From the NCBI GenBank assembly GCA_027886175.1, contig JAJNNQ010000013.1, positions 434,001-498,000 of the forward strand: 64,000 bases of DNA. Direction: 5' to 3'. Position numbers and translations under genes: made by a program. Positions 12,003 to 60,046 of the stretch are shown here, piece after piece. This stretch comes from Phylloscopus collybita (taxonomy: Eukaryota > Chordata > Aves > Passeriformes > Phylloscopidae). The notes under the pieces are model-generated. The model was not told the origin of the DNA. It did no database searches and worked only from the letters and a program-made list of their open reading frames with translations. Each line of letters opens with the position of its first letter. The stretch's first letter is position 1.

Positions 12003-12945
12003 GTATCACAGAACTATTTAGGTTGGAAAAGACCTCTGAGATAGAGTCCAATCTTTGACTGGTCATCACCTTGTCAATTAATCCATAGCACTAAGTGCCA
12101 CATCCAGTTTCTTGAGCACCTCCAAGGATGATGACTCCACTACCTCAGAGGACAGTCAGTCCAAATGCTTGACAATTTTTTCAGTGAAGGAATTCCTCCT
12201 GATGTCTAACCTGAACCTCCCCTGGTGAAGCCTGAGCCTGTGTCCTCTCACCCTGTTGCAGGTTGCCTGGGAAAAGAGGCTGATCCCCACCTGGCTACAA
12301 CCTCCTTTCAGAGAGTTGTAGAGAGTGATAAGGTGTGACACTTCCTTTTCTCTGGGCTAAACACCCCCAAGGTCCATCAGCTGCTCCTCATAGGACTTGT
12401 GCTCCAAACCCTTCACCAGCTCCACTGCTCTTCTCTGGATGCACTCCAGCACCTGAATGGCATTCGTGTGGTGATAGGCACAGAACTGGACACAGCATTT
12501 GAGGTGTGGCCTCACCAGTGCAAAGTAAAGGGAGACAATCACTGCCCTGGTCCTGCTGGCCACACTATTTGTATATAAACCAGGATGCCATCGGCCTTCT
12601 TGGCCACCTGAGCACACGCTGGCTCATGTTCAGCCACTGTTGACCAGCACCCCAAAGTCCTTTTGTGCTGGGCAGCTTTCCAGCCACTCTTCCCCCAGAC
12701 TGTAGCATGGGGTGATGTGATTCACGTGCAGGACCCAGCACTCAGCCTTGTCGAACTTCATACCATTGGTCTCGGCCCACATATCCAGATTCCTCTACAG
12801 AGCTCTCCTACACTCCAGCAGAACCAGACTCCCACCCAATTTGGTGTAAACCACAAATTTATTGAAGGAACATTTGGTCTCCTCCTGGAGGCCATCAATT
12901 AAGATATTAAACAGGACTGGGCCCAGTAATCAATGGTCTTAAAAA
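12003..12945 (-). mobile_element. CR1 LINE fragment with reverse transcriptase remnant
   Basis: A reverse-oriented CR1 copy of about 940 bp, one of the longest recent-type copies here. Read on the minus strand it passes through the end of the ORF2 reverse transcriptase and the 3' untranslated region, ending at 12003. An 86-codon open frame at 12357-12617 (minus) keeps the usual CR1 C-terminal features: a segment with [18 protein letters not shown], then the [20 protein letters not shown] motif. Stops on either side show the copy is inactive. The element is 5'-truncated in the reverse transcriptase domain, so the catalytic centre and endonuclease are missing. Confidence 0.93.
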
Positions 12946-15931: not shown

Positions 15932-15936
15932 GAAAA
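15932..15936 (+). other. Target-site duplication GAAAA, left copy
   Basis: GAAAA immediately before the LTR start. The same five bases occur at 18299-18303 immediately after the LTR end. A 5-bp duplication is the usual size for ERVL-type (class III) elements. Confidence 0.72.
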
Positions 15937-16013
15937 TGTCTTGGTTTAGAGCAAATATGGGAGGAAACTTTTAAAGGGGGTTCTTTCTTACCTAGTCCAG
16001 GAAAAAACTTCTT

Positions 16014-16037
16014 CTAACCCTAACCCTAACCCTAACC
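16014..16037 (-). repeat. Telomeric repeat, four CCCTAA units
   Basis: A perfect 24-base run of the vertebrate telomere motif in CCCTAA orientation, within the left part of the long LTR. It faces away from the TTAGGG array that starts about 350 bp later. Confidence 0.93.
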
Positions 16038-16060
16038 TGAACCCACCATATACACCCCTA

Positions 16061-16372
16061 ATTACTGTGCATGCTAGCCCACCCCCTGTCCATGATTGGC
16101 CACTCCCCTAGACCCACACGCTGCAGCTGATTGGCTGGTAACCCAGCACCGCCCCCTAAGAGTGATTGGATGGTCCCCCAGTGCCACTCCCCACTCCTGA
16201 TTGCCAGCTGGCCTGGGCCCTCTGCCTAACCCTAATAGGCCAGTTCCCTGGCACCACCCCCTACAACTGATTGGCCATATCCTAAACCCACCCCCTAACC
16301 CTGATAGGCCAGAGCCCTAGCATCACTCCTAGCTCCTATTGGCTAGAATAAAGGTTAAGATTTTTGGCCAAT
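16061..16372 (+). repeat. 35-bp minisatellite with CCAAT boxes, about 9 units
   Basis: Units start at 16061, 16095, 16130, 16165, 16200, 16235, 16270, 16304 and 16338, a spacing of 34-35 bp throughout. The core of each unit is ATTGGCCAG or a one-base variant (ATAGG, ATTGC), followed by CCCTAG and a C-rich CCACCCCCTA-like block. ATTGG is the reverse complement of the CCAAT box (the NF-Y site), intact in five units. The C-rich block resembles CACCC/Sp1-KLF sites and sometimes merges with CCCTAA. The last unit runs into TTGGCCAA and an AATAAA at 16347, just before the TTAGGG array. The GC content is far above that of the neighbourhood. Confidence 0.85.
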
Positions 16373-18038
16373 TAGAGTTATGATTAGGGTTAGGGATAGG
16401 GATAGGGTTAGGGTTAGGGTTACGATTGAATTAGGGTTTGGGTTAGGTTTAGGGTTAGGATCAGGGTTAGTGATAGGGTTAGGGATAGGGTTAGGGTTAG
16501 GGCTAGGGTTAGGTTACGGTTAGGGTTCGGGTTCAGGTTCGGATTAGGGCTAGAGTTAGGGATATGGTTGTGTTTAGTTTCAGTTCGGATTAGGGTTAGT
16601 TTTACGTTTAGGTTTAGTCTTAGGTTTAAATTTAGCTTTTTTTTTAGGCTTAGACTTAGTGTTAAGTTTGGTTTTAGGTTTAGGTTTAGTCTCAAATTTT
16701 CGTTTAGGTATAATCTTAGGTTTAGGCTTAAATTTAATCTTAGTTTTAGGATTAATCTCTAGCTTTAGTCTTAGATTTAGCCTTAGTTTTGGGCTTAATT
16801 TTTAACTTAAATTTAGGCTTAGGATTGAACTTTTTTTTAGATTTAGGCTTAAATTTCGGTTTGAATGTAGGTTTAGGTTTATGCTTAGGTTTTGGTTTTG
16901 GCTTAGGCTTAGTTTTAAATTTTGGCTTAGGCCTAGGCTTAAGCTTAGGCTTTAGGTTTAAATTTAGGCTTAAATTTAGTTTTAAATTTAGACTTAGGTT
17001 TAAATTTATGCCTAAATTTAGATTTAGGCTTATGCTTAGGTTTAAGCTTAGGCTTAAATTTAGGCTTATGCTTACGCTTAAGTTTAGGTTTAGGGTTAAG
17101 GTTGTTTTTAGTTGAGGTTAGTGTTAGGTTTAAATTTAGGCTTAGGTTTAGGTTTAAATTAAGCCTTATGCTTAGGCTTAAATTTAGCCTCAAATTTAGG
17201 CTTAGGTTTAGGCTTAGCTTTCGGCCTAATCTTAAATTTAGTTTTAAATTTAGTCTTAGGCTTAATCTTAGGCTTAAATTTAGGCTTAGGTTTAGGCTTA
17301 CATTTGGGCTTACGCTTAAGGTTAGGGTTAGGGTTAGGATTTGGGTTAGGGTTAGGGTTAGGTTTAGGATTAGGGTTAGGGTCAGGGTTAGGCTTGGGTT
17401 TAGGTGTAGTCTCAGGTTTACGCTTAAATTTAGTCTTAATTTTAGGATTAGTCTCTAGCTTTAGTCTTAGACTTAGGCTTATGTTTGGGCTTAATTTTAG
17501 ACTAAAATTTAGGCTTCGATTCAGTCTTAAATTTAGGGTTAGGATTAGACTTTTTCTTAGATTTAGGCTTACATTTAGGTTTGAATTTAGGTTTAGGTTT
17601 AGGCTTAGGTATTGGTTTTGGCTTAGGCTTAGTTTTAATTGTTGGCTTAGGCCTAGTCTTAAGTTTAGGCTTAAATTTAGGCTTAGGCTTAAATTTATGC
17701 TTAAATTTAGATTTAGGCTTAGGTTTAAATTTAGGTTTATGCTTATGCTTAAGGTTAGGGTTAGGGTTAAGGTTGGGTTTAGTTGGGGTTAGGATTAGGC
17801 TTAAATTTAGGCTTAGGTTTAGGCTTAAATTGAGCCTTATGCTTAGGCTTACATTTAGCCTCAAATTTAGGCTTAGGCTTAGGTTTAGGCCTAGGCTTAA
17901 ATTTAGTTTTAAATTTAGGCTTAAATTTAGATTTATGTTTAGGCTTAGATTTAGGCTTAGACTTAAATTTAGGCTTAGGTTTAGGCTTAAATTTGGGCTT
18001 ATGCTTAAGGTTAGGGTTAGGGTTAGGGTTAGGGTTAG
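16373..18038 (+). repeat. Degenerate interstitial telomere-like TTAGGG array
   Basis: About 1.67 kb of hexamers derived from TTAGGG. Intact or nearly intact TTAGGG units cluster at 16383-16520, 17320-17400, 17755-17770 and 18008-18038; between them the common hexamers are TTAGGC, TTAAAT, TTAGGT and TTAGTT. The forward strand is G/T-rich throughout. At large scale there are two copies of a roughly 700-bp unit (about 16600-17320 and 17321-18038). The hexamer base makes frames open on both strands (for example 162 codons at 17304-17792 and 17581-18069 forward, 184 codons at 17502-18056 reverse), giving only Leu-Gly/Leu-Arg/Phe-Arg or Asn-Leu/Lys-Pro peptide repeats, which I judge non-coding. Confidence 0.95.
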
Positions 18039-18298
18039 AAAAGAAAAGCAGTCCAAAGAATTTTTTTAGCTCAGCTAATTAAAGCTAACTAAAAGTCCAG
18101 AGCATTTTTGTCTCACAGCTCTCCGCTCCTGAGACGAACGCCGCAGAAGGATGTTTGGTGGCCAGACAGTTTTTTTAAAACAAACTGCGCGCTGCTTCTT
18201 TCTCCCCCGTCACTTTTTTTAAAAGATTAGAACTTTATACACAGCACATACAAAACAGACAATTAGGAGTATGAGCATCATAAAGTCACCCTAAGACA

Positions 18299-18303
18299 GA
18301 AAA
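18299..18303 (+). other. Target-site duplication GAAAA, right copy
   Basis: GAAAA immediately after AAGACA at the LTR end, matching 15932-15936. Confidence 0.72.
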
Positions 18304-32514: not shown

Positions 32515-33210
32515 TGTCTTAGTTTGGAAAGACAGGTATCTGCCAGGGAAAGCTGGTGTTTCCCTTGGAATGGAGAATGTAAACCCCTCACCCCTGCCAA
32601 ATTATAATTTTGCAATTAAGAGTTTTCAGGCAAAGATTTGGGGTTAGGAATAACAGTTTTTTACTAGGAATATTAACAAAACAAATGTAGTAGAAAAAAG
32701 AGTCAGAGCTACAACCTGACCCCCTGTTGGTCAGGGTGTTGGAAGCAGTCCAAAAGTGAGTCCTCCTGGAGTGGCAGATGTGGTTCTGTTGGAGTGGAGA
32801 TGATCCTGAGAGAAAAAAGGCCCAGTGATGGTGAGAAGGGTCCAGTCTTCTTCCTCCAGGAATCCAGTGGAACCAGATACCTCGGGTTCCTACATCTCAG
32901 TTTTTATCCAGGTAGGAATGGTTGGCTCCTCCCCGCCCCACTGGGTGGAGCATCTCACAATGGGATGATGGAATGTGTCCTGTCCTTGGTGAGCCTTAAT
33001 GGCCCCTTAGCAGAAGATATCCCCCTGGAGGGAGGATGGGTGGTGAAAGAGATAAGAAACACTGCCCCACCTGGTTTTAACAGCTGGCCCCTTATCAAAA
33101 GGCACCTGCCCCCCTCCACCCAGAGTTACAAGAGATAAAGGAAAATATCTCCCCAACTGCTTTCAGCAGATGAAATAGAATACACATTTTTGGTTCCATA
33201 ACCCAAGACA
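32515..33210 (-). mobile_element. Solo LTR, copy 1 (about 696 bp)
   Basis: Plus-strand ends are TGTCTTAGTTTGG and CATAACCCAAGACA, an imperfect terminal inverted repeat, flanked by a perfect 5-bp duplication CTGTG, which suits an ERVL-type element. A second copy of the same family lies at 59310-60046 in the opposite orientation. I assign the minus strand as sense because a TATA-like GGATAAAAACTG then falls in mid-element (complement of about 32898-32909); this is tentative. No retroviral genes are present. The 114-codon forward open frame at 32794-33138 lies wholly inside the LTR and has a counterpart in copy 2, which is repeat homology, not a gene. Confidence 0.82.
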
Positions 33211-53717: not shown

Positions 53718-54475
53718 TCATAGAATCATTAAGGTAGGAAAAAGCCTCCAAGACTGTAGAGTCCAACATTTCACTGCATACCATCTTGCCAACTAAATCA
53801 TAGCACTGAGTCTTATGTCCCAGTCATTTCTTGAACATCTCCAGAGATGGTGACTCCACAACCTCCCTGGGCAGCCCATTTCAATGCTTGACAACCCTTT
53901 CAGTTAAGAAATTCTTCCTGATCTCCAAGCTGAACATCCTCTGGTGCAGCTTGAGGATATGTTCTTTTGTCCTGTTGCTGGTTGCCTGGGAGAAGATGCC
54001 CACCTGGCTACACCCTCCTTTCAGGGAGCTGTAGAGAGTGATAAGATCCACCTGAGCCTCCTCTTCTCCAGGCTGGACACCCCAGCTCCCTCAGCTTCTT
54101 CTTGTCTGACTTACTCCCTAGGCCTTCTGTCATCTCTATTACCCTTCTCTGGACATGCTCCAGCACCTCAATGTCCTTGTAGTGATGGGCCCAGAACTGG
54201 ACACAGCACTCAAGGGGTGGTGTCACCAGTGCTGAGTACAGGGGGACAATCCCTGTCCTGCTCCTGCTGGCCACACCATTGCTGATACAGGCCAGGATGC
54301 CATCTGCTGTTTTGGACACACTGGCTCATATTCAGTTGCCCAGCATGCCCAGGTCCTTCTCTGCTGGGCAGCTTCCCAGCCACTCTGCCCCCAGGCTGTA
54401 GTATTGTCTGGGGTTGTTGTGACAAAAGTGCAGGACCCAGCACTTGGCTTTACTGCATCTTGGAGGGTCTGAGCT
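53718..54475 (-). mobile_element. CR1 LINE fragment with reverse transcriptase remnant
   Basis: A reverse-oriented CR1 copy of about 760 bp. The 3' end lies at 53718 (reversed 'ttcatagaatcattaaggt'). Read on the minus strand, an open frame at 54008-54319 keeps the conserved C-terminal reverse transcriptase segments: [38 protein letters not shown] and [11 protein letters not shown]. The block order matches the 12-kb copy, which is of the same or a close subfamily. It is 5'-truncated, lacks the catalytic part and is inactive. Overlapping frames on both strands are shadows of this homology. Confidence 0.93.
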
Positions 54476-58560: not shown

Positions 58561-59309
58561 AATGGACAACTTAGATCAATAAATTTTCAATAGGTTCAGA
58601 CACAAAGGTCAGGAAGAAAGTGGCATCCATTTGAGATTCTTCCATACATTGCATTCCCTTGATCTTCGCTTGCCCTAAGTTCCTATTTAAGTTTTATTCC
58701 TTATGCAGCCAATAAAGGATCAGGAGCCAATAAGGGCTCTGCTGCAGAGCAGATAATGGTTTTGTGCACAGGACAGGTATGTAGGTCTTACACAAACTTC
58801 ACTGCCCCATTATATCTATTAGAAACCACACTGAAGGTCCAAAGCAAATGTCCTTTCCTATCTTTGAGGAACTCCAGAGGCAGCAATAAATATTAGGTCA
58901 GCTCCAGTGCTTTCTCTGTATCATCTACCTTGGATATAAAAACAGTTAGAACAGGATAGGAGAAAGGAGGATAAGTGAAAAAAAACAGCTTATATTTTGC
59001 CACTTCCTTCACTTCCAATGGTTTATGACACAAAATGACACAATAAAAGTAACAAATTCTTAGTTTTTGATGCTGGCATAATATCCACTATCTAATTATG
59101 AACTTTTAAAAGTTCACAAAAAACTCAGTGTCTCTTTTACATTGTTGTCATATTTGCATGGCAGAAACTTTTCATATCAATTCTAATCCAGGAAGAAGTT
59201 CAATGTTGAGATTGGATAAATGTACAAAAGCAGAATGTTTCCATTCATTTATTAGATGTCTCTGAAAATATTCCTTATCTTGTCTTTTTCTGAGATTCCC
59301 AGGCCCTTG
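58561..59309. other. Unique non-coding DNA
   Basis: Nothing recognised between the old LINE and LTR copy 2. Confidence 0.4.
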
Positions 59310-60046
59310 TGTCTTCAGTTATGGAATCAAAAAAGTGTATTCTATTCCATTTGTTGAAAGCAGTTGGGGAGATGTTCTTTATCTCTTGTAACTCTGGGAG
59401 GAGGGGCGTGGGTGCCTTCTGATAATGGGCCAGCTGTTAAAACCAGGTGGGGCAGTGTTTCTTATCTCTTTCACTGCCCATCCTCCCTCCAGGGGGATAT
59501 CTTCTGCTAATGGGCCATTAAGGCTCACCAAGGACAGGACACATTCCATCATCCCATTGTGAGATGCTCCACCCAGTGGGGGGAGCCAACCATTCCTACC
59601 TGGATAAAACTGAGACACAGGAACCCAGAAGGTATCCAGCTTCACCTGAGTCCCGGAAGAAGACTGGACCCTTCTCACCATCACTGGACCCTTGTTCTAC
59701 AGGATCATTTCTACTTCAACAGAACCACATCTGCCACTCCAGGAGGACTCACTTTTGGACTGCTTCCAACACCCTGACCAACAGGGTGTCAGGTTGTAGC
59801 TCTGACTCTGTCAGGGTTTTCCAAACTTGTTTGTTTGTTTGCTTGTTTGGTTGGGTGGTTTTGTTTTCTACTACATTTGTATTGTTAATATTCCTGGTAA
59901 AGAACTGTTATTCCTATTCCCAAATCTTTGCCTGAAAGCCCTTGATTGCAAAATTATAATTTGGCGGGGGTGAGGGGTTTACATTCTCCATTCCAAGGGA
60001 AACTCCAGCTTTCCCTGGCAGATACTTGTCTTTCCAAACCAAGACA
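59310..60046 (+). mobile_element. Solo LTR, copy 2 (about 737 bp), inverted relative to copy 1
   Basis: Plus-strand ends are TGTCTTCAGTTATGG and TTTCCAAACCAAGACA. It is the reverse complement of 32515-33210 over nearly its whole length; shared stretches include 'ccagctgttaaaaccaggtg' (59429) and 'ggaggactcacttttggact' (59742). The forward strand carries a TATA-like GATAAAA at 59603-59609, so I tentatively call this strand sense. Copy 2 has extra T/G-rich sequence (59827-59868) absent from copy 1. The flanking five bases (CCTTG, GTGAG) do not match, so no target-site duplication is visible. The open frames at 59379-59684 and 59564-59935 are inside the LTR and not genes. Confidence 0.82.
59827..59868 (+). 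repeat. (TTTG)n insertion in LTR copy 2
   Basis: GTTTGTTTGTTTGCTTGTTT-type expansion that accounts for most of the length difference between the two LTR copies. Confidence 0.8.

What the first reader, a model, noticed from the sequence alone, without database searches (positions are those of the whole stretch)
15937..18298. A telomere-like satellite carried inside a retroviral solo LTR
The TTAGGG-derived array would normally be read as an interstitial telomere left by a fusion or repair event. Here it sits inside a block with LTR-type ends (TGTCTTGG at the left, AAGACA at the right) flanked by an identical 5-bp target-site duplication (GAAAA at 15932-15936 and 18299-18303). The same type of ends and a 5-bp duplication (CTGTG) mark the ordinary LTR at 32515-33210. 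If correct, a mobile LTR family has captured telomeric repeats plus a CCAAT minisatellite and spread them as cargo, which would seed telomere-like DNA at interior chromosome sites. I do not know of a described element with this structure.
Basis: partly seen in the sequence, partly recalled or inferred. Interest (0 to 1): 0.9.

Follow-up and report, generated by a model that had tools for sequence, protein, structure and literature searches.

The report
Chromosome-end fragment lodged in solo LTR
An old retrovirus-like repeat in this bird-like genome appears to have been interrupted by a copied piece of chromosome end (telomere repeats plus the sequence beside them), so it probably does not carry telomeres around as cargo; the piece suggests that chromosome-end DNA can be captured at interior sites.

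Summary
In detail: an LTR with a GAAAA duplication (15937-18298) encloses a CCAAT minisatellite and a degenerate TTAGGG array. Its ends belong to an ordinary ~660-bp LTR family; about 280 bp of interior is replaced by a 2.0-kb block (16014-18037). The cargo reading is not supported: no telomeric run lies at the matching place in 39 other right-end copies or the 27 other left-end copies read (of 39 scored), and none of 20 ten-kb loci with other CCAAT blocks has an LTR end. Only best candidates were scored. The source is the chromosome end: the minisatellite is the sequence beside telomere arrays, found at 39 distinct contig ends, all pointing outward (45 of 47 matches of one search). Nine interior copies, window included, were read; the eight compared pairwise are related to each other and to the caps. 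Best explanation: a chromosome-end fragment was captured at a break inside an old solo LTR. The window and L033 have outward-pointing telomere repeats on both sides of the minisatellite, as if the broken piece was re-capped first; this step is inferred. Known kind (interstitial telomeric insertion), new variant because the cap came along. No orthologous empty site could be tested.

The parts
15932..15936 (.). left target-site duplication GAAAA of the LTR
   Evidence: exact 5-bp repeat abutting both LTR ends
15937..16013 (+). left part of an old solo LTR; aligns to positions 1-104 of an ordinary 661-bp copy (L004) with internal gaps
16014..16037 (+). (CTAACC)4: short C-strand telomere repeat, pointing outward relative to the block
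16038..16372 (+). CCAAT (GATTGG) ~35-bp minisatellite, homologous to the telomere-adjacent cap at contig ends
   Evidence: 23 other matches, E 4.5e-39 to 7.2e-7
16372..18037 (+). degenerate TTAGGG-derived array with related stretches 671-696 bp apart
18038..18298 (+). right part of the same LTR; aligns to about positions 387-661 of L004 (exact junction ambiguous by a few bases)
18299..18303 (.). right target-site duplication GAAAA

Best explanation
An ordinary LTR element inserted (GAAAA duplication) and became a solo LTR. Later a double-strand break inside it lost about 280 bp and was repaired by capturing a 2.0-kb fragment of a chromosome end: the telomere-adjacent CCAAT cap plus the variant telomere repeats beside it. 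The short outward-pointing (CTAACC)4 on the other side suggests that the fragment's broken end had been re-capped with telomere repeats before capture. Shown: LTR anatomy, homology of the block to chromosome-end caps, interior copies elsewhere, absence of the block from the other LTR copies read. Inferred: the order of events, the break, the re-capping.
For: Both LTR ends belong to a family whose copies read have ordinary interiors. The CCAAT cap lies at 39 distinct contig ends, all outward and at most 13.8 kb from the end, in 45 of 47 matches of one search; 20 of 20 pieces fetched just distal to such matches hold TTAGGG. Other interior copies exist at 7 places and at one more, L128. Leaving out L035 (cap-like) and L128 (not compared), the window and six interior copies are 73-89% identical to each other and 72-84% to six caps; the caps are 88-95% to each other. 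The window block and the six interior copies tested have no abutting duplication of 3 bp or more, while the LTR has one (L035 and L128 not tested). Published telomere-repeat insertions often come with a deletion at the break: 65 of 130 rodent and 13 of 25 primate loci (PMC2246262, passages). Telomere repeats point outward on both sides in the window and L033, and L034 carries about 1 kb of CCCTAA on the cap's inner side, joined at different points of the minisatellite.
Against: No empty orthologous site was available. The array is more degenerate than the LTR's age would give if it had been pure TTAGGG when captured (my estimate), so it was degenerate already or turned over. The same mammalian study set subtelomeric-type degenerate loci aside as probably products of recombination involving telomeres, a route I cannot exclude, and it also records duplications at 6 of 130 and 4 of 25 loci. 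Block boundaries in these old copies are approximate. Only two loci show telomere repeats on both sides; L030, L031, L035 and L128 show an array on the distal side only, L038 on neither, and L032 has one ambiguous CCCTAACC. Only 40 LTR candidates were scored in each search, and 12 of 39 left-end hits were not read.
Confidence: 0.74

Rival explanations
1. An LTR subfamily captured the chromosome-end block and spread it as cargo; the window copy is one old member.
For: The LTR with its GAAAA duplication encloses the block exactly. Sisters could be as diverged as the 75-76% and rank below the scored candidates.
Against: 0 of 39 right-end hits and 0 of 27 left-end hits read have telomeric runs at the junction. 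0 of 20 loci with other CCAAT blocks have an LTR end at E 1e-3.
Confidence: 0.08
2. The block entered as an RNA copy: a telomeric transcript started in the CCAAT cap, was reverse transcribed and inserted at a break or by a LINE.
For: The cap has CCAAT and CACCC boxes upstream of TTAGGG in the right orientation. L031 and L038 both begin at CCCCTAATTAGTA.
Against: No abutting duplication at the 7 cassettes tested. The 13 caps measured are CpG-poor, observed/expected 0.07-0.26, unlike CpG-island TERRA promoters. L034 carries its array on the inner side, which a telomeric transcript would not give. Inner start points vary.
Confidence: 0.1
3. Ectopic recombination or gene conversion between subtelomeres placed the block, since some interior copies lie near contig ends.
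For: Window 0.45 Mb, L034 1.13 Mb, L030 0.4 Mb, L035 69 kb and L128 1.4 Mb from a contig end. A mammalian study reads degenerate subtelomeric-type loci this way (PMC2246262, passage).
Against: L031, L032, L033 and L038 lie more than 13 Mb from either contig end. The window's flanks are an LTR; no flank shared between interior copies was seen by eye, but this was not searched. Not every contig end is proved to be a chromosome end.
Confidence: 0.06
4. Chromosome fusion left the telomeric DNA.
For: Interstitial TTAGGG arrays are often read so.
Against: Both sides are one LTR in order with one duplication, and the telomere repeats point outward, CCCTAA-CCAAT-TTAGGG, the reverse of a head-to-head fusion.
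Confidence: 0.02

Closest known systems
Interstitial telomeric sequences inserted at double-strand breaks (Nergadze et al. 2007, PMC2246262; title, abstract and passages seen)
   Same: telomere repeats inside ordinary or repetitive DNA, often with deletion at the break
   Different: here the piece includes the telomere-adjacent CCAAT cap and runs to 2 kb, so the donor looks like chromosome-end DNA and not telomerase copying its own RNA
Subtelomeric and fusion interstitial telomeric sites (review PMC9693754, passages seen)
   Same: degenerate TTAGGG plus subtelomeric sequence
   Different: not at a fusion point; enclosed by one LTR with a target-site duplication
Songbird LTR retrotransposon families (PMC6523648, passages seen; no family name matched here)
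   Same: TG...CA ends and classification by duplication length; the passages name one element with both 5- and 6-bp duplications
   Different: interior replaced by chromosome-end DNA in this copy, not in the other copies read
TALT-type telomere templates in nematode and mouse ALT lines (recalled; no paper seen)
   Same: a non-telomeric unit flanked by telomere repeats, present at chromosome ends and at interior sites
   Different: no evidence here of spread from an interior copy to the ends or of telomerase loss
Galliform subtelomeric PO41 repeat (PMC4301066, passages seen, parts of the abstract included)
   Same: avian subtelomeric tandem repeat
   Different: 41-bp unit; sequence not compared here

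Membership tests
LTR retrotransposon, solo LTR | TG...CA ends | tested here: met
   TGTCTTGG...AAGACA
LTR retrotransposon, solo LTR | short flanking duplication | tested here: met
   GAAAA; of four other copies looked at, L002 has exact CATTC, L004 four of five bases, L003 and L005 none
LTR retrotransposon, solo LTR | multi-copy family with the same ends | tested here: met
LTR retrotransposon, solo LTR | proviral coding region in relatives | not tested
   no provirus was read
LTR family with telomeric cargo | several copies share the LTR-block junctions | tested here: not met
   0 of 39 right-end hits, 0 of 27 left-end hits read of 39 scored; only the best candidates were scored
Interstitial telomeric sequence from break repair | telomere repeats inserted in non-telomeric DNA | tested here: met
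   LTR flanks on both sides
Interstitial telomeric sequence from break repair | empty ancestral site without the insert | tested here: inconclusive
   paralogous LTR copies lack it; no orthologous site was available
Interstitial telomeric sequence from break repair | no target-site duplication of its own as a rule | tested here: met
   0 of 7 cassettes tested; boundaries approximate
Chromosome-end cap | homology to telomere-adjacent sequence | tested here: met
Chromosome-end cap | position at a chromosome end | tested here: not met
   0.45 Mb from the contig start
TERRA promoter | transcription toward TTAGGG | not testable with these tools
   no RNA data; CpG depletion speaks against the CpG-island type

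The most novel reading that the evidence does not exclude
Chromosome-end caps in this lineage shed fragments that are re-capped by telomerase on the broken side, giving tiny linear pieces with telomeres at both ends; such pieces are repeatedly captured in interior DNA and seed cap-plus-telomere islands across the genome.
Probability: 0.2. Interest if true: 0.65.

Novelty: new variant of a known kind. Interest (0 to 1): 0.42.

Why it matters
It replaces a cargo-carrying retrovirus by a simpler source, and it shows that one CCAAT-rich cap is shared by at least 39 contig ends of a bird-like genome while pieces of it lie inside chromosomes. Interior copies that hold both cap and telomere repeats preserve older versions of the chromosome end and could date cap turnover. 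Telomere repeats on both sides of a captured cap would be evidence of telomerase healing of a broken end fragment.

Tried and rejected
Rejected: LTR cargo (junction checks); chromosome fusion (orientation, one LTR); transposon-style insertion of the block (no abutting duplication); a phage relative of the minisatellite (no match in one distant-mode search); a CpG-island TERRA promoter (CpG observed/expected 0.07-0.26). An early note in the notebook that true caps share the inverted telomere repeats on the inner side was wrong: those counts were CCCTAATT units inside the minisatellite. Long CCAAT arrays on C59 (L129-L131 read), C30 and C68 (not read) look like local expansions and were not used. 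Paper searches: five returned listings, none of which showed an LTR with telomeric cargo or this cap; seven failed; the counter stood at ten. Three paper look-ups failed. This does not show absence from print.

Full report
Setting. The window is G000:C13:434001-498000 of an unnamed 1.247-Gb assembly of 517 contigs. The finding lies 0.45 Mb from the start of a 32.1-Mb contig (for the length).

The outer ends are TGTCTTGG and AAGACA with an exact GAAAA on both sides. Inside are (CTAACC)4, a ~35-bp GATTGG minisatellite and a TTAGGG-derived array. In the array 27 of 218 TTANNN words are TTAGGG and 162 of 1667 bases lie in exact TTAGGG. Stretches of the array recur 671-696 bp apart, 73-82% identical without gaps.

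The ends are an ordinary LTR. The left 77 bp found 39 other matches (40 of 260 candidates scored) and the right 265 bp found 39 others, the best at 76% (40 of 1396 scored). Against L004, an uninterrupted 661-bp copy, the window's left part covers 1-104 and its right part about 387-661, so roughly 280 bp is replaced by about 2.0 kb. L002 has a perfect CATTC duplication, L004 four of five bases, L003 and L005 none. K2P distances of the window's right part to these four are 0.24-0.28, and among the four 0.12-0.25: this copy is old and no near copy was found.

Cargo test. I read 80 bases just inside the right end at all 39 other scored hits: 0 of 39 hold TTAGGG; by eye 37 show the ordinary LTR interior and 2 (L053, L085) other DNA. 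On the left I read 27 of the 39 other scored hits: 20 pieces of 80 bases and the 100 bases after the match in L002-L008. None of the 27 holds CTAACC; L093 is other DNA, the rest look like LTR. The one TTAGGG counted in six of L002-L008 can be explained by the family's own end, which reads TTTAGGGCA in copies printed. Twelve left-end hits were not read. Among 20 ten-kb loci holding other CCAAT blocks, 0 have either LTR end at E 1e-3.

Source of the block. The minisatellite has 23 other matches at 21 places: 14 within 12.4 kb of a contig end and 7 interior. I read 20 of the 21 (C51 not read). In the 13 terminal ones read, the minisatellite abuts a long TTAGGG array on its outer side. A canonical copy from one end (L036:4775-5010) found 47 matches (40 of 185 candidates scored): 45 lie at 39 distinct contig ends, all pointing outward, at most 13.8 kb from the end; the other 2 are one place on C28, 69 kb from its end. 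Twenty of 20 short pieces just distal to such matches hold TTAGGG. Three of the contig starts read do not begin in telomere repeats: L040 and L045 begin with 2.5 and 5 kb of N, and L041 with about 1.7 kb of AT-rich DNA. An inverted repeat lies just inside the cap in 12 of 13 caps tested.

Interior copies. With the window there are nine read: L030, L031, L032, L033, L034, L035, L038, L128 and the window. Leaving out L035 and L128, the seven are 73-89% identical to each other over 72-318 aligned bases and 72-84% to six caps; the six caps are 88-95% to each other. The alignments are local and of a tandem repeat, so the identities are generous, and the two interior ranges overlap. L035 is nearly a cap (84-91% to caps). 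L128 was found later and not compared. The order of distinctive units (for example GGCCCCTGGCCTGGACC before CCCTAATTGGCC) recurs in several, by eye, which suggests one older cap as ancestor.

How it got there. The window block and the six interior copies tested (L030-L034, L038) have no abutting duplication of 3 bp or more, while the LTR has one. In the looser test the blocks do no better than random pairs of places (335 to 996 of 1000 pairs reach them); the LTR's loose match was reached by 96 of 1000. In mammals, telomere-repeat insertions often come with a deletion, 65 of 130 rodent and 13 of 25 primate loci, and some lie inside repeats; the same study first removed subtelomeric-type degenerate loci as probable products of recombination involving telomeres (PMC2246262, passages). 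Break repair fits the window because both flanks are one LTR with a piece missing. Orientation adds a detail. The window reads CCCTAA-CCAAT-TTAGGG, and so does L033; L034 has about 1 kb of CCCTAA on the inner side and none beyond. The inner telomere repeats join the minisatellite at different points. That is the layout of a small linear piece with telomeres at both ends, and the reverse of a head-to-head fusion. The other copies do not show it clearly: L030, L031, L035 and L128 have the array only on the distal side, L038 on neither, and L032 has a single ambiguous CCCTAACC. So re-capping before capture is an inference from two or three loci.

Limits. Only the best candidates were scored in each search. 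No related bird was available for an empty site. The array is more worn than the LTR: if pure when captured and diverged about 12-14% per site (half of the K2P, my estimate), near 40% of hexamers should be intact, against about 10% of bases. It was probably a variant array already, as repeats beside present caps are, or it turned over. CCAAT boxes exceed single-base shuffles strongly in some caps (0 of 500 reach L029, L036, L040, L041) and weakly in others (63 of 500 reach L045), and CpG is depleted in all 13, so a promoter role is open. Best-explanation and rival odds were lowered slightly on this check because subtelomeric recombination is a published reading of similar loci and because 12 left-end hits were not read.

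Literature. Songbird LTR families were curated in PMC6523648; a search of its text found no word beginning with telomer. A review states that some interstitial sites were probably inserted during break repair, that bird FISH usually shows only terminal signals, and that interstitial sites are frequent in chicken and palaeognaths and seen in other birds (PMC9693754, passages). Two bird assembly papers gave no passage describing this cap for the terms used (PMC11745021, PMC7757076). Seven of twelve paper searches failed, so no claim of absence from print is made.

Noticed in passing
32515-33210 and 59309-60046: Two copies of another LTR in inverted orientation, aligned arms 88-97% complementary; the first has CTGTG on both sides.
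   Followed up: partly
L029, L036, L037, L040-L048 (exact motif), L035 by eye: upstream of the cap: A conserved inverted repeat around CAGGCGACCGGGGAGTA lies just inside the cap in 12 of 13 caps tested; L039 lacks the exact motif.
   Followed up: partly
C59:7681270-7681870, C59:7699770-7700370, C59:17363200-17363900 (L129-L131); C30 near 29-52 kb and C68 near 254-322 kb (coordinates only): Expanded arrays of cap-like CACCCC/CCCTAA units away from telomere arrays.
   Followed up: no
L006 and L008 (contig C11): Many LTR left-end hits lie on one 6.4-Mb contig; in L006 and L008 they stand beside what looks, by eye, like zinc-finger coding repeats.
   Followed up: no
16584-17964: Stretches of the array recur 671-696 bp apart at 73-82% identity, so the variant pattern may be older than this duplication.
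   Followed up: partly
12282-12569 and 53995-54280: A dispersed repeat in two direct copies, pieces 83-92% identical.
   Followed up: no
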